A stretch of 64,000 nucleotides of DNA, taken from assembly GCA_949358305.1 (NCBI GenBank), contig OX442314.1, forward strand, positions 57,669,369 to 57,733,368, written 5' to 3'. Position numbers and translations under genes: made by a program. The stretch comes from Strigamia acuminata (lineage: Eukaryota > Arthropoda > Chilopoda > Geophilomorpha > Linotaeniidae). Position 1 is the stretch's first letter; each line of letters begins with the position of its first letter. The notes under the pieces are model-generated. The model saw only the letters and a program-made list of their open reading frames with translations, was not told the DNA's origin and ran no database searches. Below are positions 19,531-32,492 of the stretch, one piece after another.

Positions 19531-19534
19531 CCGT
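19531..19534. other. Target-site duplication of element B, left (CCGT)
   Basis: CCGT precedes the TG of the B 5' LTR and recurs at 32489-32492 directly after the 3' LTR. Confidence 0.92.
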
Positions 19535-20673
19535 TGTGGTGACCTCAAATATTCCTATTTGAGTGCGCACCATATTTCCAAATTGTCTTATAAACATATT
19601 CAACAAGCTTATATGTTTTGTTTCAAGGTAAATTGAAATAAAACATACATTAATAAAATATAAAACAAGACACAATATTACCCAAATAATATTGTGTTTT
19701 GCAGCAAGTTTTGGCCCAGCAACAGCGTCAACCAATCGCGCTGCAGCGTGCATTGCTTTGATGATGCTGCTAGGCGTGTGCCTGGGCGGAGCATCCCTTC
19801 CCCTCGCGCGTGCCCGGCTCGATTGTTGCACACGACCCGAAGGCGGCCGTGTGTGATCTTCATGCAACTCGTCATCTGCGCAGCTTTTCTGAGCAGATTT
19901 AGAAGTGAGCCAAACGGTTTTGGCCCACTCTTCCCGCACTCTTGATTCCACCTCCAAACTGTTCACAACCGTGTCAAACTTCTGCCAAAACTGCAAAGTG
20001 TGATCTGTGATTCTTGGACGAATTGAGTTTCATCGCTGGTCTGTACCCACTGTACGGAATAGCAACTTTCTAGCTTGAATTACTACACGTAATTTAAGCC
20101 ATTTCTGTGTGTGAATTGACATTGAGCTTGCTCTGTCGATTTGTAGTTCTTTGTGTCGAGCTTGCTCCACAAAGAAATCTGTGTGAAACTAACATCGAGT
20201 TTACTCTGTTAGTTTGAAGGCTTTGTGTTGAGTTTAACTCCACAAAGCGAATTGTGTTAAGACGGATTGTTACGTCGAGCTTGCTCCGTAATAATCAAAC
20301 CGCTGTGTGCAAGACGTATTCTCGTGTCGAGCTTGCTCCGCGAGGATTTTAGAATATTTTAGCAACGTATTTTAGCGTCGAGTTTACTCCGCTAAAATCC
20401 CGCGCTCACACGACGCCATCGACGCCATCTTGGAGCCAACGGTCAACTGTGAGTGTAGATATTGAAGAAGAAGCCAGATCGACCCCAAACATTTTGAATA
20501 ATACCTCCTTTGTATTTTGAACAATTAAAGCTATCTAATTTTTCCTTTACTCTGTGTAAAATTATTCCCCTAGACAAACATTTGGCCACAGAGTAGAAGT
20601 CCTGTACGGCATCTCTACGACGATTGCTTGTTAAATTTACCTAATTTAATAAGTAAAAACCCGGATCGCCGCA
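19535..20673 (+). repeat. Element B 5' LTR
   Basis: Begins TGTGGTGACC, ends GATCGCCGCA, 1139 bp, equal in length to the 3' LTR. The first 450 bp carry an antisense ORF of about 190 codons, present in both LTRs. The second half carries a seven-hairpin array (20114-20398). Confidence 0.95.
20114..20398 (+). repeat. Seven-hairpin RNA array in element B LTR
   Basis: Seven consecutive inverted repeats: 20114-20141, 20147-20176, 20186-20215, 20220-20248, 20265-20296, 20318-20347 and 20369-20398. Each has an 8 to 10 bp stem of its own sequence (for example TTCTTTGTG/CACAAAGAA, AAACTAACA/TGTTAGTTT, GATTGTTACG/CGTAATAATC, ATTTTAGCG/CGCTAAAAT). Each is capped by nearly the same 12 to 13 nt: TC or TT, then GAG, then CTTG, TTTA or TTTAA, then CTC. 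Stems change by compensation while the apex stays, which is what an RNA-protein recognition site looks like. The copy in the 3' LTR is at 31929-32213. Confidence 0.88.
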
Positions 20674-20675
20674 CT

Positions 20676-20693
20676 TGGGGGCCCAGCCGGGAT
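20676..20693 (+). other. Element B primer-binding site
   Basis: TGGGGGCCCAGCCGGGAT starts two bases after the LTR. It is of the same TGGGGG type as in A and D, differing in the middle. The primer tRNA is not certain. Confidence 0.75.
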
Positions 20694-20765
20694 AGTTTTG
20701 ATTGTTAAAACCCGATTTTTGCGAAAAAATCCTTTATTTCCATTGTTCTTTTTCAATTTGACAAA

Positions 20766-23660: not shown

Positions 23661-23689
23661 GCGCGCATCCCGACGGTCTAGTGGATGCG
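23648..23689 (+). promoter_or_regulatory. Element B -1 frameshift signal with possible pseudoknot
   Basis: A_AAA_AAC at 23648-23654 is in the gag frame. A 9-nt spacer containing the gag stop is followed by a perfect 7-bp stem, CGCATCC (23664-23670) with GGATGCG (23683-23689). Loop bases CGGT (23674-23677) can pair with ACCG (23696-23699), which would make an H-type pseudoknot. Pol is in the -1 frame and open from 23609. Confidence 0.85.
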
Positions 23690-26600
23690 ACGCCTACCGC
23701 CTCGGAAAATGAACTAACACCATCTCAAATTTTAGATGATTTTTTAAATACTCAGATTAAATTAGAATTAGAAAATAATTTAATATTTCCAAAAATTGAT
23801 GTTTCCAATTTAAGGCTTGTGCTGCAAAATGAGAACATCACTGAAGAATTTTTTAAAGAAAAAGTTCAACAAATAAAAATTGATTGGGAATCTAAAATAA
23901 AAGATGCTGTTACTTTACTTGATGAAAAAACTAGGCCAACACCTGAAATCATTGAAAGGTCAGATAAAATTGATTTACCTGGTCTTGATGAATGTATTGA
24001 AAAATTAATGGCTGCAACGCTAGTCACTAATGATTTATTGGACGAATTACCATTAGATCCGCCGATAGAAATTAAGCCACCGCGACGTTTTAAGTGCAAG
24101 TACGCGGACATACCAAACAGCAATGATTTGCCGACGATTCGATTGCAGACGGCAAACGGTATGATAACAGGGATGTTAGACTCTGGAGCTAATCGAAGCT
24201 TCATGGCCTACTCCGTAGTAATTTCGCTGAAACTGGAAGATGAAATTCGACCAATTGGACCGGATGTGAGAGTTACGACTGCTTCTGAAGATGTAGTCCC
24301 TGAAGGAACTCTCCTACTTTCTTTTGCGTGGACACACGGGATGTTAAGTCATCCATTCATAATTTTAAGAAATAAATATCCTATTATTTTATTAGGATGT
24401 GATTTCATGAATCGACTCAATATTCAACCAAATCCTAAGACCATGTCTTGGAATTTTGTCAAGTCTTTGAAAGAAGATTTACCTTTTGTTCCTCAAGCGA
24501 TTCTTGATCGTTATCAAGAGTTCCTTGATCCACCCGAAGAAATCATGAGACGCGACTTTATTAAAGCAAATCACATGAAAGCTGGCTCTGCCACTGCGTG
24601 TCAAGCTAAAGTTGCAAATGAAGAAAATATAGTACAAAGACTTGTTAGCGACGCTAATTTGTCAATGGAAAATAATTTAATGCTTGAAAAAGTATTAAAG
24701 AAACATGAAAAGATTTTATCACGCCGACCAGGTAGAACACACCTCGTTAGGCATGAAATTAAACTGGACACTAAAGTTCCTATTAGAGTTCCGTTTAAAA
24801 GTGTAAATCCACAAAAACGTGAAATTATCCGTCAAATCTGTCAAGACATGTTGGATAATGGATACGTTGAACAAGCCACTGGAGACTATGGAATGCGAAT
24901 AGTTCTAGTGATGCGTCCGGATTGTGATCCGAGACTCTGCATTGATTTTAGACCACTCAATGCACATACATTATACGACCCTCCTCAAATGCCGAGCATT
25001 GAGGAAATCTTGCGAGAACTCGGAAGATTTGAATGGGTCACAACGATAGATTTGTCAAAAGGCTATTGGCAGATAGAGGTTCATCCGAACGACCGTGCTA
25101 AAACTGCGTTTTGGAGCCCTTTGGGTCGACTACAATTTCGAGTCATGCCCTTTGGTCTCGTAAATGCGCCGTCAACTTTCCAAAAGTTGATAGAAAAGAT
25201 TTTGGGGGACGCCTATCGAAAATTCGCATGGGCATACCTCGATGATATAATTATTATATCAAAAAATTTTGAAGAACACATGATTCATCTGGAAGAAATT
25301 CTGAGTAAACTTGAAAATGCAAATCTTCATGTTCATCCAGAAAAATCAAAATTTGGCAGAAAAGAATTAACTTTTCTTGGTTACAAGTTAAGTGTTCAAG
25401 GAGTTAGTGTCGACCCTAAAAAAGTCGCCGCCATTAAAGAAATGCCAGCTCCTTCAAATTTAAAAGAGTTGCAAAGATTTTTGGGAATGGTGAACTTTTT
25501 TCACAGATTACTCAAGAATCTAGCAGTCATGACGGAACCTCTACGTCCTTTACTCAAAAAGGATGTGGAATTTATTTGGTCAGAAATTCATCAAGAAGCT
25601 TTTGATCAAATAAAAGATGCTCTAACGAATGCAGAAACAATGGCCATGCCCGATTTGACAGAACCATTTATTGTGCATACCGACGCCAGCAGAAAAGGAC
25701 TAGGCGCCGCTCTTATGCAAATGAGGGAAATCGATGATCAAAATATCGAAGTGCCTTGTGTTTATGCCAGCAGAAGTTTACAACCTGCTGAAATAAATTA
25801 CAGCGCCACAGAATTAGAATGCCTTGCGGTAATCTGGGCATTACGTAAATTTCGACATTATTTGGAATTTACCACATTTATAGTAAGGACTGACCATCAA
25901 GCATTAAAATGGTTGATGCAGTTAGACGAACCTGCCGGAAGGTTAGCACGTTGGCAAATGGAGCTGATGCGCTACTCTTTCGAAATACAATATATTAAAG
26001 GTCCACTAAATGTTTTAGCGGATGCTTTATCCAGATCACCGATTGACAAACCGGAAAATCCTGAAGATGATGGAGATAATGACGAATTATTATCTTACTG
26101 TCCATCACCTCAACGAAATTGGAAAATGGGAAAGTTTCATGAGCTTCCTGTCTCCACGCTGGAGGAAAAGGAAGATCATGAATTCGTCAACTATTGGACT
26201 AAAATCTATGACCCCTCTGAGGAATCAGATGACGTCATAAGAGCGCAAATTTCAAGGAAATTCCAAGTTCCTTCGTCAAATGTTTTAATAAAAGCATTTG
26301 TCGCCAAAATTGTAGAACGTCTTGATTGTGAACCTCCCACAAGGGAAGACATAATTAAGGCACAGAAAGAAGATAAAGTGTGCCAATTGATGCGTAATTT
26401 TTTAAATTGTAATCAATTTCCGCCTGACGTCACAACGCGACTCCAGAGGAAACAATATAGAAAACACGCAACCACCTTCTTAATTGAAGACGACTTATTA
26501 ATGCAATTTCATCCCACAATGTCTGATGAATTGGGGGAGGATGGGAGAGCACTCAAAGTTTTTGTACCTCAGACATTGAAGTATAAAATTATTTGGCTGA

Positions 26601-28129
26601 TGCATGGCCACCCACTTTCTGGCCACCCAGGAATTGCAAGGACTCTTTATCGAGCACGCCGAATTTATACCTGGAAAGGCATGAAATCGGACATTACGAG
26701 ATTCATTCGACATTGCGAGCGTTGTCAAGCTTGCAAGCCTCGAACGAAAGGACAAATTGAAGCAGCGCAAATGGGTCCTTACAGCCCATTTGACTGCCTA
26801 AGTGTTGATTTGACCGGCCCGAAACCTCGGACGCGCAAAAACAACACACATATTTTAGTCATACTTGACGTGGCAACTCATTGGCCAGAATTATATCCAA
26901 TGTGTAACCCCACTGCTGGAAAAGTAGCAAATTGCATTTATCACCTTTCCATGAGCATGGGATTCCCTCGTAAAATTATTTCTGACAACGGCCCGCAATT
27001 TCGTGCCCAAGTCTTTAAAAAATTTTGTGAAAAGTTCAAGATGGTTCCAACACCAACTTCAACGTATCACCCACAAGCTAACCCGGTTGAAAGGGTTAAC
27101 CGTGACATCAAATATTTGGTTGCAATTTATTCATCTGTTCATTCCAAATGGGACGAATATTTGCGTGAATTTGCATTTAGTTTGAGAACTACGGTGACGA
27201 GAGGAAGAGACTTCTCTCCCGCATTTCTTAACTTTTTTCGCGAACTCAGAGTACCTTGGGATCCAAGAATACCTGAAGGAATTTTGGTCGTAGATCCAAA
27301 AAACCCACATTTATACGTGCAAAAATTAGAAACCGTTATCGCCGAAACATATCAGCACATGATGTCACACGTGTTAGATTTGCGTAGACGAGTAAATCTT
27401 AAAAAAGAAGGTGAGAAGTTCTCCAATTTTAAATTAAACGATTTAGTTTGGAGAGATTCTCATGTTTTGTCGAGCGCTGCCCGCGGCATTGCAGCTGGCA
27501 TCGCTGATAAAAGAACAGGACCATATGTAATAACCAAAGTATTACAGGGAGGATCCGTAGAATTGAGAAAGCTAGAAAATAACGAAATATTTCCAGCTAT
27601 CCATTCATCTGAATTAACTCCGTATTTCCCGAGTTTCGACCAGGAAGTATGGTTAGAAGGCGAAGAAGTCGGTCAAAAGACTGAAAATATAATTAATACG
27701 TTAGATGACGATGAATTAAAGAAAATACCTGTCGATAATTCATCCAAACCACAAATGGAGTCAGACCTCGTGAATAACGACGTTGAACTTCGTGACAGTT
27801 TCAAAAAGCTTGAAATTGCTAAAAAATTAAATAAAAAGGTGTTTTTAGAAAAGAAACAAAAAACATCTGAAATAAAAGACTCATCTGACTCAGTCTCCGA
27901 TGACAATGAAGACGGCGATTTAAATACAATAAATCCCTCGCCGACAAAGAGATATAATCTTCGGACTCGTAAACCGAGAGGAAAAAACAACATGTGTCTT
28001 CTCCCCTCGCTAACCTCGAGATCCAGGGATCAGCCGTATGACGTAAGGAGCAATTCCTCAAGCCATACTCAAACCAATCAAACAATAAGATTGGATGACG
28101 TCACTAACAGCGACGTTACCCAAACGTAA
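23681..28129 (+). CDS. pol: Element B Pol (protease, RT, RNase H, integrase)
   Basis: The frame is open from 23609 and is entered by -1 frameshifting at 23654; the region from 23681 encodes 1482 residues. Protease: catalytic DSGA at about 167. RT: CIDFRPLNAHT near 424, the MPFGLVNAPSTFQK block near 490, and active site YLDD at about 519. RNase H: HTDASRKGLGAAL near 665 and TDHQALKW near 745. Integrase: zinc finger HGHPLSGHPG...CERCQAC at about 975-1015, then the catalytic triad in SVDLTGP (about 1044), SDNGPQF (about 1103) and NPVERVNR (about 1137), and the GPYVITK module near 1280. The C-terminal 200 residues are charged and disordered-looking. No stop or frameshift is seen. Confidence 0.95.
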   Translation: MDATPTASENELTPSQILDDFLNTQIKLELENNLIFPKIDVSNLRLVLQNENITEEFFKEKVQQIKIDWESKIKDAVTLLDEKTRPTPEIIERSDKIDLPGLDECIEKLMAATLVTNDLLDELPLDPPIEIKPPRRFKCKYADIPNSNDLPTIRLQTANGMITGMLDSGANRSFMAYSVVISLKLEDEIRPIGPDVRVTTASEDVVPEGTLLLSFAWTHGMLSHPFIILRNKYPIILLGCDFMNRLNIQPNPKTMSWNFVKSLKEDLPFVPQAILDRYQEFLDPPEEIMRRDFIKANHMKAGSATACQAKVANEENIVQRLVSDANLSMENNLMLEKVLKKHEKILSRRPGRTHLVRHEIKLDTKVPIRVPFKSVNPQKREIIRQICQDMLDNGYVEQATGDYGMRIVLVMRPDCDPRLCIDFRPLNAHTLYDPPQMPSIEEILRELGRFEWVTTIDLSKGYWQIEVHPNDRAKTAFWSPLGRLQFRVMPFGLVNAPSTFQKLIEKILGDAYRKFAWAYLDDIIIISKNFEEHMIHLEEILSKLENANLHVHPEKSKFGRKELTFLGYKLSVQGVSVDPKKVAAIKEMPAPSNLKELQRFLGMVNFFHRLLKNLAVMTEPLRPLLKKDVEFIWSEIHQEAFDQIKDALTNAETMAMPDLTEPFIVHTDASRKGLGAALMQMREIDDQNIEVPCVYASRSLQPAEINYSATELECLAVIWALRKFRHYLEFTTFIVRTDHQALKWLMQLDEPAGRLARWQMELMRYSFEIQYIKGPLNVLADALSRSPIDKPENPEDDGDNDELLSYCPSPQRNWKMGKFHELPVSTLEEKEDHEFVNYWTKIYDPSEESDDVIRAQISRKFQVPSSNVLIKAFVAKIVERLDCEPPTREDIIKAQKEDKVCQLMRNFLNCNQFPPDVTTRLQRKQYRKHATTFLIEDDLLMQFHPTMSDELGEDGRALKVFVPQTLKYKIIWLMHGHPLSGHPGIARTLYRARRIYTWKGMKSDITRFIRHCERCQACKPRTKGQIEAAQMGPYSPFDCLSVDLTGPKPRTRKNNTHILVILDVATHWPELYPMCNPTAGKVANCIYHLSMSMGFPRKIISDNGPQFRAQVFKKFCEKFKMVPTPTSTYHPQANPVERVNRDIKYLVAIYSSVHSKWDEYLREFAFSLRTTVTRGRDFSPAFLNFFRELRVPWDPRIPEGILVVDPKNPHLYVQKLETVIAETYQHMMSHVLDLRRRVNLKKEGEKFSNFKLNDLVWRDSHVLSSAARGIAAGIADKRTGPYVITKVLQGGSVELRKLENNEIFPAIHSSELTPYFPSFDQEVWLEGEEVGQKTENIINTLDDDELKKIPVDNSSKPQMESDLVNNDVELRDSFKKLEIAKKLNKKVFLEKKQKTSEIKDSSDSVSDDNEDGDLNTINPSPTKRYNLRTRKPRGKNNMCLLPSLTSRSRDQPYDVRSNSSSHTQTNQTIRLDDVTNSDVTQT

Positions 28130-28337
28130 CTTCCGGTATTTGAACTGATCACTTCGCGTCTGAGTTCACTTCGATCTCACACGTGTGCTAAGTGCTCATC
28201 TCCGAAAAACCAAAAGCGAAACAACTGGATAAATTCTCCCGAATCTTCAATTGTAAGTAGTTTTTTCTTTGGAATTTTCCAAAGAAAAACTAATAAATTA
28301 ATTTTCGTTTTTCTTTCCATTTGGATTAGTCGTTCAA

Positions 28338-31172
28338 ATGGAAGGAGAGGAACCGAAAGAAGGAAGCGAAGCCGGCGCCAACAGCCTCGAATTAGAAACA
28401 AATTCGACGCTGCTTGGTTCCGCAAACACTTCGAATACATCCGTGGATGTCACCGAAGAGTCCGCCGAAGCGTCCGCCGAAGCTCAAGCCGCTCTGGCCG
28501 ACGCTGCTGCCCGTTTGCCAGTCACGCCGCCCCGACCACAACTTCGAGGAGGCCTATTCGCCGATCCAAACGGCGAAACTCGTGCACAGAGACACGACCG
28601 GGTAAATAATTTAAAATAAAATTACCTTTCAGTCATGAAAAGTAATTAAAAGTGCATTTTCACTCAGAAAACGCGAAAAGTTCGTTGGTAACGCCTTCGC
28701 AAGAAGGCGCCGCCATTATTATCATCAGATGGCGCTGTGTCTCGTTTTTGAGGCGTTGCTACGGTAACGCTCCAACATTGAAACATAGCCGTCGGAAACA
28801 ACGTTTTTCACGATTTTTCAAATATTTTGAAAAATTTAATGAATCTAAACTGTCGAATGAAATCTCACCCGTGATTTTATTCACTGAAAATTCGGAAATA
28901 ATTATTTTACACGAAAAAATGGATTTTAATTATTTCTTCGAATATTTTACAGATCATCCAGCTTCGGGAAACACATCTCGAACTGCATCCCGATGTTCCA
29001 ACCGCTCCTGGTGTCTGGCGACACGCATTGCCGCCAGAAATCATAAAGTCGAAAGGACGACTGACGTTTTGGGCGGCCCGACACAAATTCTCCAAGGCCT
29101 TAAACAAGCGATGGGGAACGAAGTTTCGGATCGCCTATTTAATCGATGGATTCGGTCATCGCGACGCCCTCGAGTGGGCAATGAAGCGCGATACCTTCGG
29201 ACCACTGCGAAACGTGTTGCTCGACTTCGCCTTCACAGTGATCAATCAAGAAACGCGAGACCATCGCCGTTACTTCAACGCTCCTGCGTGGGAGCGTCGA
29301 CAGATTTTGGAGGATATTTTCCAACGCTTGGACCAAACCAAAGCCGAGGTTGTACGCCTCTACAACGAATCTTTCCGTGTAACAACGGACGGAAAGAAAC
29401 GTTGGGTGCCGACATGCCAATCGGAGATGCATCAACTAGCCATGGGCGGATGTTTCCATGCTGATTTCGTGCCAAACCCGTATCCAGAGCCTGAGCCCCG
29501 GGTACAGGTCGCTTCCACCATCCACGTGGTGCCACCGCGCTCCACGTCGAGGTCACGATCTTCGAGGTCGCCCTACAGTGGCCGTCGTTCCTCCCCAACA
29601 CAGTCGTCGGGGGAAGGCGCCATTGGAGGGTTACCTCCACTCCAGAAGGCTCGTCATCGCTCACATCACCGACGCGAGCCGACGCCGCCAAAAAGACATT
29701 CGAAGTCCGTGTCGAGACCCACATCCCGAAGCCGACCTCGAGTACAATCGCGCCAATCTTCCACGAGGAGTTCACTCTCGTCGCGTGAAGAAAGGTCCAA
29801 CGCTTCACAGCTTGGCGCTTCCTCCTCCGGCCGGATTGACTGGTCGGACGAGATAGCGAAGGAAGACCAACGCATCGCCGCATTGCAAGCCGGTCAAGGA
29901 GACGTCAACACCTCTTTGCCGTTTGCTTGCCGTCCAGTTACCAGCGACATGCGACCAGACCCATCGGTGCCCGTGCCACAAGTGACATCGGTCATCCGTT
30001 TTGAGGGATACGTCTCTCACGAACCATTTCCCGCACAGGAGTGCGCTGATCTCTGGAGGCGATTCTCATCGTTTCCCGAGACAGCCCAAGCGATGTACCT
30101 CGCGCATCTGGACGAATACCAACTCGCTCAGATCCGCGAAGGTGAGAAGGAATGGCAATGGCTTGCGCGAGAGCTTGCGTCGTGCAAGTCCGACAAGCAA
30201 CTGCAACGGACGCTGCAGAAAATGAACAGGAAATTGTCGGAGGGACTGCTTCGAATCCTGTTCCAAGGAGTCTTTCCCGACCCACAGATTGCTCTGGCGG
30301 CCGCCACTCGATTGTGGACCGTGCCGTTAGGGCTTCCACGAGCCTTGCTGGACGACTGGGAGTCAGTTCGCCCCGATCCTCCAACGATGCTCGCCGAATT
30401 GACGCAACAAGCCGAGGCGACTGGCGAAACTCCGGCTGGATCCGCCATTCGACTACGGCAGGAATGGGCTGCGCTGAAGCAGCGACGCGCAGCAGAACGA
30501 GCTACCGCCCGTCCCGCTGGCGCACCACCGTCATCCGCAGCTCCACTCCACGCTGCCATCACGGCAACGTCGAGTGTTTCCCGTGCAACCGAGGCACCGA
30601 GTTGCAACATCTCGTCTCCAATGGAGTGGCTCGACAGCGACGATCGCGAGTTCGTCGTGCCTGTGGCCTGCGGTGCCAGACCAAAGACGCGCACCCCGGC
30701 TTTGCGCAGATCCAGATCCCTCTCGATCTGCAAGAAGTCGCCGCCACCGCCGCCTCCTCCAAAGGATTCGCCGCCAAGAGATAGGGGATCAAATATGGCC
30801 ACCCACCTCACCGCCTATCAACGTTTGCGCTCATTATACGCCTTTTGCTACATAACGAGCGCAACGAAAACAATTCTCCAGAACAGCGAGGATTTATGCA
30901 ACCGAGTCCTCGCGTGGCTGGAAAACCACATCAAGGAACAGCAGCCGTGGATCCTACATCAACGCCTGGTGTTCGCTCGAATTACGCCTCAAGACCCGCA
31001 GGAGTATTTCGAGATGGGTTTTGGACGAAGGGATGGTGTGGACCGCATCAAGCAAGTGTGGCTCCACATCAACCCTGGCTTCCGGTCAGGACCAAACGCC
31101 GGCCGACCTTTGTGCACCGTCACGGAGCACAAAGATCCAAACGATCATTCGACGGACATGTTGCCGAAATAA
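28338..31172 (+). CDS. Element B ORF3, spliced accessory protein, not envelope
   Basis: Two exons fit one frame: 28338-28601 (acidic, Ser/Glu/Ala rich, 88 codons) and 28953-31172. The intron, 28602-28952, starts GTAAAT, ends TTTTACAG and is phase 0; joining gives about 827 residues. Exon 2 opens with a folded, aromatic-rich region (LTFWAARHKFSKALNKRWG, then RDALEWAMKRDTFG). It continues with an Arg/Ser-rich tract at about 280-370, an all-helical central region, a poly-Pro stretch near 682 and a C-terminal folded segment. There is no signal peptide, furin site or transmembrane segment, so it is not an env. The basic RS tract suggests nuclear or RNA binding, which is inference. It lies between pol and the polypurine tract. 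Confidence 0.75.
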
Positions 31173-31349: not shown

Positions 31350-32488
31350 TGTGGTGACCTCAAATATTCCTATTTGAGTGCGCACCATATTTCCAAATTG
31401 TCTTATAAACATATTCAACAAGCTTATATGTTTTGTTTCAAGGTAAATTGAAATAAAACATACATTAATAAAATATAAAATAAGACACAATATTACCCAA
31501 ATAATATTGTGTTTTGCAGCAAGTTTTGGCCCAGCAACAGCGTCAACCAATCGCGCTGCAGCGTGCATTGCTTTGATGATGCTGCTAGGCGTGTGCCTGG
31601 GCGGAGCATCCCTTCCCCTCGCGCGTGCCCGGCTCGATTGTTGCACACGACCCGAAGGCGGCCGTGTGTGATCTTCATGCAACTCGTCATCTGCGCAGCT
31701 TTTCTGAGCAGATTTAGAAGTGAGCCAAACGGTTTTGGCCCACTCTTCCCGCACTCTTGATTCCACCTCCAAACTGTTCACAACCGTGTCAAACTTCTGC
31801 CAAAACTGCAAAGTGTGATCTGTGATTCTTGGACGAATTGAGTTTCATCGCTGGTCTGTACCCACTGTACGGAATAGCAACTTTCTAGCTTGAATTACTA
31901 CACGTAATTTAAGCCATTTCTGTGTGTGAATTGACATTGAGCTTGCTCTGTCGATTTGTAGTTCTTTGTGTCGAGCTTGCTCCACAAAGAAATCTGTGTG
32001 AAACTAACATCGAGTTTACTCTGTTAGTTTGAAGGCTTTGTGTTGAGTTTAACTCCACAAAGCGAATTGTGTTAAGACGGATTGTTACGTCGAGCTTGCT
32101 CCGTAATAATCAAACCGCTGTGTGCAAGACGTATTCTCGTGTCAAGCTTGCTCCGCGAGGATTTTAGAATATTTTAGCAACGTATTTTAGCGTCGAGTTT
32201 ACTCCGCTAAAATCCCGCGCTCACACGACGCCATCGACGCCATCTTGGAGCCAACGGTCAACTGTGAGTGTAGATATTGAAGAAGAAGCCAGATCGACCC
32301 CAAACATTTTGAATAATACCTCCTTTGTATTTTGAACAATTAAAGCTATCTAATTTTTCCTTTACTCTGTGTAAAATCATTCCCCTAGACAAACATTTGG
32401 CCACAGAGTAGAAGTCCTGTACGGCATCTCTACGACGATTGCTTGTTAAATTTACCTAATTTAATAAGTAAAAACCCGGATCGCCGCA
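31350..32488 (+). repeat. Element B 3' LTR
   Basis: 1139 bp. Differences from the 5' LTR that I can see: C to T in the AATATAAAACAAG stretch, G to A in the apex of hairpin 6 (GAG to AAG, which breaks one apical pair), and T to C near 32378. The hairpin array is at 31929-32213. Confidence 0.95.
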
Positions 32489-32492
32489 CCGT
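32489..32492. other. Target-site duplication of element B, right (CCGT)
   Basis: Second copy of CCGT. Its last three bases are the Arg codon of A pol that precedes the ATG at 32493. Confidence 0.92.

What the first reader, a model, noticed from the sequence alone, without database searches (positions are those of the whole stretch)
20114..20398. Seven tandem covarying hairpins with one constant apex in the element B LTR
Seven adjacent inverted repeats have different 8-10 bp stems that pair perfectly or with G-U wobbles, yet all carry nearly the same cap: TC or TT bulge, GAG, tetra- or pentaloop (CTTG, TTTA, TTTAA), CTC. Constant apex on compensating stems is the signature of a repeated RNA-protein recognition site, similar in logic to phage coat-protein or retroviral packaging hairpins. 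G(CTTG)C is a known stable tetraloop. Present in both LTRs (31929-32213). I know of no described LTR with such an array. Its job (packaging, export, translation or Gag/ORF3 binding) is inference.
Basis: partly seen in the sequence, partly recalled or inferred. Interest (0 to 1): 0.9.

Follow-up and report, generated by a model that had tools for sequence, protein, structure and literature searches.

The report
Covarying hairpin array in retrotransposon leader
LTR retrotransposons in what is probably an arthropod genome carry, in the leader of their RNA, a row of small hairpins whose stems change in step while the tip stays the same, which looks like a repeated docking site for an RNA-binding protein and makes the poorly known RNA recognition of such elements testable.

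Summary
The array is real and behaves as an RNA element. Seven hairpins at 20114-20398 (again at 31929-32213, one cap mutated) have 8-10 bp stems of different sequence under one apex: purine, 2-nt bulge U-Y, G-A-G, 4-5 nt loop, C-U-C. In 39 distinct genomic rows (H4-H7), 99.3% of 1403 stem cells pair, against 39-51% in slid registers. The leader holding the array has no ATG for 891 nt (12.6 expected; CAT at expectation), so the array sits in a scanned 5' leader and probably also in the 3' UTR. Other LTR families carry the design on other stems, one with a second apex subtype. Five- and seven-hairpin arrays occur; seven may be a recombinant. The first bulge U and a purine below it hold in 66 of 66 hairpins while the second bulge base and the loop vary: the letters an arginine sandwich motif (TAR, 7SK) needs. 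Gag and ORF3 both have arginine-rich stretches. Best reading: a multivalent site for an element-encoded arginine-rich protein, most likely Gag, for genome selection and translation control. The partner is untested.

The parts
19535..20673 (+). 5' LTR of element B (TSD CCGT 19531-19534 and 32489-32492)
   Evidence: (1140 bp at 99.7% identity to the 3' LTR), boundaries and TSD read
31350..32488 (+). 3' LTR of element B
20114..20141 (+). Hairpin H1: AATTGACA-TT-GAG-CTTG-CTC-TGTCGATT
20147..20176 (+). Hairpin H2: TTCTTTGTG-TC-GAG-CTTG-CTC-CACAAAGAA
20186..20215 (+). Hairpin H3: AAACTAACA-TC-GAG-TTTA-CTC-TGTTAGTTT
20220..20248 (+). Hairpin H4: GCTTTGTG-TT-GAG-TTTAA-CTC-CACAAAGC
20265..20296 (+). 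Hairpin H5: GATTGTTACG-TC-GAG-CTTG-CTC-CGTAATAATC (one G.U)
20318..20347 (+). Hairpin H6: ATTCTCGTG-TC-GAG-CTTG-CTC-CGCGAGGAT (two G.U)
20369..20398 (+). Hairpin H7: ATTTTAGCG-TC-GAG-TTTA-CTC-CGCTAAAAT
31929..32213 (+). Second copy of the array in the 3' LTR; H6 cap has one G-to-A change
19863..20765 (+). ATG-free leader that ends at the gag start codon 20766 and holds the array
   Evidence: ATG at 19862 then none until 20766; in 19875-20765 0 ATG, shuffled mean 12.6, 0 of 1000 shuffles at 0
20524..20529 (+). ATTAAA, polyA-signal-like, downstream of the array
   Evidence: read; AATAAA at a like place in L092
20766..23660 (+). Gag ORF (Retrotrans_gag, CCHC knuckle; arginine-rich stretch at residues 372-396)
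23681..28129 (+). Pol ORF (RT, RNase H, integrase; Ty3/gypsy domain order)
28338..31172 (+). ORF3, probably spliced (exon 1 28338-28601, GT..AG intron, exon 2 from 28953), arginine/serine-rich, no Pfam match
   Evidence: splice sites read by eye

Best explanation
A cis-acting RNA array in what is probably the repeated (R) part of the LTR of a Ty3/gypsy-type element, so that it lies in the 5' leader and in the 3' UTR of the full-length RNA. Shown by sequence: stems are kept by compensation, the apex is constant, and the leader is depleted of upstream ATG on the sense strand only, as expected if ribosomes scan through it. Inferred: each apex (purine, U-Y bulge, G-C, A-U, G-C) is an arginine-sandwich-like pocket; several pockets in a row give a multivalent site for an arginine-rich protein made by the element itself, most likely Gag. 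When enough protein is bound, scanning is blocked and the RNA is taken from translation into the particle, so the array both marks the genome and switches its use. Rough step confidence: RNA element under selection 0.95; in the scanned leader 0.9; protein-binding site 0.75; element-encoded arginine-rich partner 0.5; genome selection or translation switch by Gag 0.4.
For: Pairing in 99.3% of 1403 cells against 39-51% in slid registers and 97.3% after shuffling within columns (0 of 500 shuffles reach it); 38 cells with both sides changed against 13.4 shuffled, 0 of 500. On a tree from the LTR upstream of the array, 43 of 51 pair-state changes keep a standard pair, 6 of them Watson-Crick to Watson-Crick on both sides. 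Cap columns: first bulge T 155 of 155, second bulge C 100 / T 55; diversity GAG 0.025, CTC 0.008, stems 0.081, spacers 0.137. With the bulge left free in the search, 66 of 66 hairpins with at least 8 of 9 pairs have T first and a purine below it. ATG-free leader in the window; 72 loci examined, median ATG-free run 722 nt against 186 for CAT. Same design in other LTR families with other stems (- output cut -, 67). Arginine-rich stretches in Gag of B (12 R/K in 25), in Gag of L092 (10 in 25) and in ORF3 of B (9 in 25). Definition of the arginine sandwich motif from passages of PMC6189040.
Against: No RNA, protein-binding or probing data. The number of pairs with a change on both sides (3) and of further pair types (21) does not exceed the shuffles (257/500 and 500/500 reach it); the same holds for the set of 18 hairpins (9 pairs, 224/500; 24 further types, 121/500). 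The slid control favours any structure derived from one of the rows. The H4 G-C to U-A change may be a swap of whole hairpins (H2 type for H4 type), not point compensation. LTR recombination inflates event counts. The G.U over A.C excess (18 against 4 types) is weaker once the spacer mutation spectrum is allowed for (expected G.U share 0.62; p 0.037). Loop diversity (0.083) is hardly higher than that of stems. Stable hairpins in a scanned leader would by themselves slow translation. Arginine-rich stretches are common in Gag and in disordered proteins. Stems of the two other LTR families hold a recurrent C.A mismatch. Some loci lack the long ATG-free run (L009, L023, L061, L064, L067).
Confidence: 0.45

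Rival explanations
1. ORF3 is a Tat-, Rev- or Rex-like regulator: an arginine-rich protein made from a spliced RNA that binds the array in nascent or unspliced RNA and raises elongation or export of full-length RNA.
For: Array in the probable R region near the RNA's 5' end, as TAR is (recalled); apex matches the arginine sandwich letters; ORF3 has an apparent GT..AG intron and an arginine/serine-rich part, and L092, an element without detectable pol, keeps gag and an ORF3 relative (39% over 231 aa).
Against: The part of ORF3 that aligns between families (306-532 of exon 2) is not the most arginine-rich part; no Pfam match and no useful PDB match; the single-sequence model is poor (pLDDT 43).
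Confidence: 0.22
2. A host RNA-binding protein binds the array (RNA localisation, stability, translation or defence), and the element exploits or tolerates it.
For: The apex is kept across families whose Gag and ORF3 differ strongly (33% and 39% identity), which a host partner would explain.
Against: Of 20 places fetched from the start of the list (100 of 891 matches listed), 18 belong to these LTR families (13 B-type, 4 second family, 1 third), L023 shares only a 52-bp H7-like stretch, and L022 is probably chance; the cap does not look like a widespread host mRNA element.
Confidence: 0.2
3. The hairpins serve reverse transcription: pausing or strand transfer through the R region, or dimerisation, with no specific protein.
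For: The array lies in the presumed R region, which is copied at strand transfer.
Against: Does not explain an invariant first bulge base and purine (66 of 66) with free change of stems; the loops are short and vary, which fits kissing poorly (inference).
Confidence: 0.07
4. Perfect stems come from a mutational process: template switching in reverse transcription repairs imperfect palindromes.
For: Inverted repeats are common in these LTRs (and reading).
Against: Such repair would be expected to remove the 2-nt bulge and the G.U pairs too; both persist (118 G.U cells; bulge T-first in 155 of 155 cells). G.U states shared by two or more rows: 10; A.C: 0.
Confidence: 0.03
5. The array acts as DNA: binding sites of a dimeric factor or an insulator, as the repeated sites in the gypsy leader.
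For: GAGY-N2-RCTC is a DNA palindrome, and repeated sites in an LTR-element leader have a precedent (recalled).
Against: Compensation in stems of unrelated sequence, one-sided bulge and G.U tolerance point to + strand RNA; the strand-specific loss of ATG shows that the region is read as RNA.
Confidence: 0.03

Closest known systems
Arginine sandwich motifs of HIV TAR and cellular 7SK stem-loop 1
   Same: A Watson-Crick pair, a pyrimidine bulge whose first U can form a triple with an A-U pair two steps above it; TAR U23 with A27-U38, 7SK U40 with A43-U66 (passages of PMC6189040). TAR lies in R (recalled).
   Different: Here several separate hairpins, each with one pocket and a 4-5 nt loop; no known Tat or HEXIM partner; three-dimensional structure not tested.
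Retroviral and Ty1/Ty3 genome packaging regions
   Same: Structured 5' leader between R and gag with Gag contact in retroviruses (recalled); Ty3 RNA packaging depended on UTRs or POL sequences (passage of PMC4974528).
   Different: My searches showed no packaging region described as a tandem array of one repeated apex on unrelated stems; PMC4974528 (passages) says Ty3 RNA structure remains uncharacterised and packaging sequences are not precisely defined.
RNA phage coat-protein operator hairpins (MS2 type)
   Same: Bulged hairpin as protein site, translation repression linked to packaging (recalled).
   Different: Different bulge and loop, tandem array, leader position in an LTR element.
Structured export elements in retroviral LTRs (HTLV RxRE, HERV-K RcRE)
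   Same: RNA structure inside LTR sequence read by an element-encoded arginine-rich protein (recalled).
   Different: Those are single branched structures (recalled), not repeats of one small hairpin; not compared here.
gypsy su(Hw) site array
   Same: Repeated sites in the leader of a Ty3/gypsy element (recalled).
   Different: That is duplex DNA bound by a zinc-finger protein (recalled); here RNA pairing is conserved.

Membership tests
Ty3/gypsy-type (Metaviridae) LTR element | gag plus pol with RT, RNase H, integrase in that order between LTRs | tested here: met
   Retrotrans_gag, CCHC, RVT_1, RNase H, H2C2 and rve in order; LTRs
Errantivirus-type element | envelope as third ORF | tested here: inconclusive
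   no Pfam match at E 5 and no useful PDB match for ORF3 exon 2; arginine/serine-rich with long low-confidence parts; membrane segments not tested
Arginine sandwich motif | pyrimidine bulge base placed for a triple with the stem pair two steps above; Watson-Crick pair just before the bulge | tested here: met
   secondary structure and letters only: first bulge base T 66 of 66, pair below 45 G-C, 20 A-U, 1 G.U; GAG/CTC was set by the search. In the orthologous rows, where it was not set, T 155 of 155 and GAG/CTC nearly invariant
Arginine sandwich motif | triple formed and arginine stacked in the pocket | not testable with these tools
   needs NMR or crystals
TAR element | bound by a Tat-type protein that recruits an elongation factor | not testable with these tools
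   no binding data; no family match for ORF3
Retroviral-type packaging signal | located in the RNA leader between the transcript start and gag | tested here: met
   indirect: ATG-free leader containing the array
Retroviral-type packaging signal | needed for genome packaging and bound by Gag | not testable with these tools
   experiment needed
Any Rfam family | match above a family's gathering score | tested here: not met
   0 matches in the window; 4 matches up to E 10 on 20060-20440, best E 1.1 on the minus strand, all far below gathering

The most novel reading that the evidence does not exclude
A lineage of Ty3/gypsy elements in a probable arthropod evolved a modular array of TAR-like arginine-sandwich hairpins in its leader, bound by its own arginine-rich Gag or ORF3, so that hairpin number, changed by recombination in units of two, tunes genome selection and the switch from translation to packaging; a new class of retroelement control element.
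Probability: 0.3. Interest if true: 0.9.

Novelty: new variant of a known kind. Interest (0 to 1): 0.76.

Why it matters
[quoted passage not shown] Here evolution has marked the RNA, the base pairs and the likely contact letters in many copies (891 cap matches), with natural variants of hairpin number, so the question can be tested with short oligonucleotides and purified Gag or ORF3. If the pocket is an arginine sandwich, it would show the TAR/7SK solution in a retrotransposon, as a repeated array.

Tried and rejected
Rfam search: nothing. ORF3 exon 2 by Pfam at E 5 and by PDB sequence: nothing useful; its structure by AlphaFold without alignment: pLDDT 43, so no fold search was made. The pair of second-family matches on C6 12.9 kb apart gave a stretch without B-like coding sequence, so it is not taken as an element. 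L093, chosen as a possible third-family element, held no relative of gag, pol or ORF3. In some searches the ORF3 exon 1 query was in the wrong frame, so only exon 2 was tested there. The covariance model R1 could not be run on this genome. Literature: searches gave no paper; one search gave three unrelated ones; some searches gave listings in which no listed title or abstract start describes such an array; two searches were for TAR and the arginine sandwich. Subscription literature is not covered. Shuffle measures that did not favour the structure are told in the Against line. L022, a cap place outside these LTRs, was set aside as probable chance. L035 and L037 were dropped from the tree count for lack of the upstream LTR part. 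One search collapsed 53 rows to 39 distinct. Alignment A1 used 18 of the 31 distinct hairpins, chosen by hand for diversity; later counts use all hairpins in the fetched loci that meet the stated pattern. One search left out L029 (same place as L015), L089-L091, L093, loci under 2000 bases and loci without enough caps; copies of one element are not independent there. In a check with any three-pair apical helix, 31 of 50 two-base-bulge hairpins had a T-first bulge with GAG/CTC, the rest one or two of a kind.

Full report
What is there. Element B is a 12.95 kb Ty3/gypsy-type element with 1139 bp LTRs (19535-20673, 31350-32488; 99.7% identical), a CCGT target duplication, gag (964 aa, Retrotrans_gag and one CCHC knuckle), pol (1482 aa, RT-RNase H-integrase) and a third reading frame. 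It sits inside the RT of another Ty3-type element. The genome is an unnamed 237.5 Mb assembly with 54 Chitin_bind_4 matches, so an arthropod is likely.

The seven hairpins are at the stated coordinates with the stated caps. In the 3' LTR the H6 cap has one G-to-A change. The fold is far more stable than shuffles (z -4.36, 0 of 100). Local folding gives mean stem pair probabilities of 0.50 to 0.96. The global minimum does not show all seven.

It is not a one-off. The cap pattern with its bulge and closing bases occurs 891 times in the genome against 18 for the reversed control; the bare core GAGYTTRCTC has a smaller excess, 2588 against 1975. Of 28 loci L001-L028, 21 match the B LTR by BLAST; L013, L014, L017 and L027 belong to a second LTR family, L021 to a third (an LTR by resemblance), L023 carries one H7-like hairpin in a 52-bp stretch shared with B copies, and L022 looks like chance. 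A first DNA search scored 40 of 268 candidates, all 40 matching; a search with a diverged copy scored 40 of 276.

Hairpin number varies. Of the B-type loci counted, 9 have seven caps (L001-L008, L020), 31 have five, 7 have four, 2 have three and L009 two, by a strict cap pattern. These loci are not a random sample: 26 of 40 matches span the whole query, as the seven-hairpin type would, and 14 only its later part. Five-hairpin arrays read H1 or H3, then H2 or H4, then H5, H6, H7: L016, L018, L019 and L025 begin H3-H4; L040, L041, L043, L044, L047, L048 and L049 have an H2-type second hairpin; others have H1-H4. The window subtype, H1 to H7, is what an unequal exchange between an H1-H2 type and an H3-H4 type would make (inference). 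Both alternatives at each place form complete stems.

Covariation at the same place. In 39 distinct rows (of 53) for H4-H7, 99.3% of 1403 cells pair, against 39-51% when the partner is slid by 1-3 columns and 97.3% after shuffling within columns; 38 cells have both sides changed against 13.4 in shuffles, 0 of 500. Three pairs carry both-side changes: 20374/20393 (A-U 20, G-C 18, other 1), 20377/20390 (G-C 25, A-U 14) and 20220/20248 (G-C 33, U-A 5, U-G 1). The last may be a swap of whole hairpins. Against the reading, the number of such pairs and of further pair types does not exceed the shuffles (257/500 and 500/500), and the slid control favours any structure taken from one of the rows. On a tree from the LTR upstream of the array (37 of 39 rows), 43 of 51 changes keep a standard pair, 3 give A.C and 5 other mismatches; a tree from the downstream part gives 58 of 66, 3 and 5. 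LTR recombination makes these event counts upper bounds.

Which strand. In the same rows 118 cells are G.U, 4 A.C, 6 other; by type 18 against 4. The spacers' own spectrum already predicts a G.U share of 0.62, so the excess is moderate (p 0.037), but states found in two or more rows are 10 G.U and 0 A.C, and transversion types in stems are 9 against 23 expected.

Which letters are held. First bulge base: T in 155 of 155 cells. Second: C 100, T 55. Diversity: GAG 0.025, CTC 0.008, loop 0.083, stem 0.081, spacer 0.137. With the bulge left open in the search, 66 distinct hairpins with at least 8 of 9 pairs have bulges TC 34, TT 31, TA 1, and a purine below the bulge in all 66; loops begin and end with C..G or U..A in 64 of 66, the others being TTTG and CTTA (my tally of its loop list). 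Selected by cap alone in the fetched loci, 72 of 92 distinct hairpins have at least 7 of 9 standard pairs.

Where it is in the RNA. From 19875 to 20765, the base before the gag ATG, there is no ATG in 891 nt; dinucleotide shuffles give 12.6 on average and none of 1000 reaches zero, while CAT, the same word on the other strand, is at its expectation, 10 against 10.5. In 72 loci of several families the median ATG-free run around the array is 722 nt against 186 for CAT; L009, L023, L061, L064 and L067 have short runs, and copies of one element are not independent. The simplest cause is selection on a leader that ribosomes scan from upstream of the array. An ATTAAA at 20524 downstream of the array, and AATAAA at a like place in L092, suggest that the array is also in the 3' UTR. 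Start and end sites are not mapped.

Relatives. The L092 element (second LTR family) has a Gag relative (33% over 392 aa) and an ORF3 relative (39% over 231 aa), no detectable pol, and an ATG-free run of 1044 nt up to the gag ATG. Its LTR has the B-type cap on another stem and a second apex subtype, CACCTGCGAGCTTTACTCCGGA and variants, on stems such as ACAGTGAAC/GTTCACTGT and ATTCGTAAGC/GCTTACGAAT, and in related loci ATCTGTAAAC/GTTTACAGAT. In 24 distinct hairpins of this subtype, the first nine pairs are 196 Watson-Crick, 7 G.U, 3 A.C, 10 other of 216. The third family (L021, L059-L062) has GAGTCCCG/CGGAACTC-type stems with a recurrent C.A mismatch.

What it probably does. In the arginine sandwich motif of TAR and 7SK, a bulge pyrimidine forms a triple with a stem pair and an arginine stacks between it and the nucleotide of the pair just before the bulge; in TAR U23 meets A27-U38, and in 7SK a U-U bulge has U40 on A43-U66 (passages of PMC6189040). 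The B apex has the same secondary structure, and the positions held fixed include those the motif needs. Gag of B has RSRRRHRSKRKRPSDSEERRADRNP at 372-396, Gag of L092 an arginine-rich stretch at 527-551, and ORF3 an arginine/serine-rich part. I therefore favour a multivalent site for an element-encoded arginine-rich protein, Gag first, ORF3 second. Because the leader is scanned, binding would also repress translation. This part is inference.

Novelty. Searches of the open library listed no description of such an array; I saw listings, plus passages of PMC6189040 and PMC4974528. Packaging and response hairpins are a known kind; a tandem array of one apex on unrelated covarying stems in an LTR leader is, as far as I could search, a new variant.

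Noticed in passing
28338-31172: ORF3 seems spliced (exon 1 28338-28601, intron to 28952) and arginine/serine-rich, with another short GT..AG intron-like stretch just upstream (28253-28329); no envelope match by Pfam.
   Followed up: partly
L092 (G000:C13:725600-733400): A related element keeps gag and ORF3 but no detectable pol, with LTR matches about 7.5 kb apart; possibly a non-autonomous family that depends on pol in trans.
   Followed up: partly
L092:165-345: Three further LTR inverted repeats share an ATCC loop on different stems (read by eye), perhaps a second class of constant-apex hairpins upstream of the array.
   Followed up: no
20073-20099: A further inverted repeat GCTTGAATTAC/GTAATTTAAGC with a 5-nt loop lies just upstream of H1.
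   Followed up: no
19531-19534 and 32489-32492: Element B is nested in the RT of another Ty3-type element, with a 4-bp target duplication CCGT.
   Followed up: partly
20675-20695: Candidate primer-binding site after the LTR (TTGGGGGCCCAGCCGGGAT; TTGAGGGCCCGGCCGGGAT in L092) is G+C rich; the tRNA was not identified.
   Followed up: no
L021, L059-L062 and L013, L017, L079, L087: Stems of the third and second LTR families share a recurrent C.A mismatch at the fourth or fifth pair below the bulge, which may be a real part of those subtypes.
   Followed up: no
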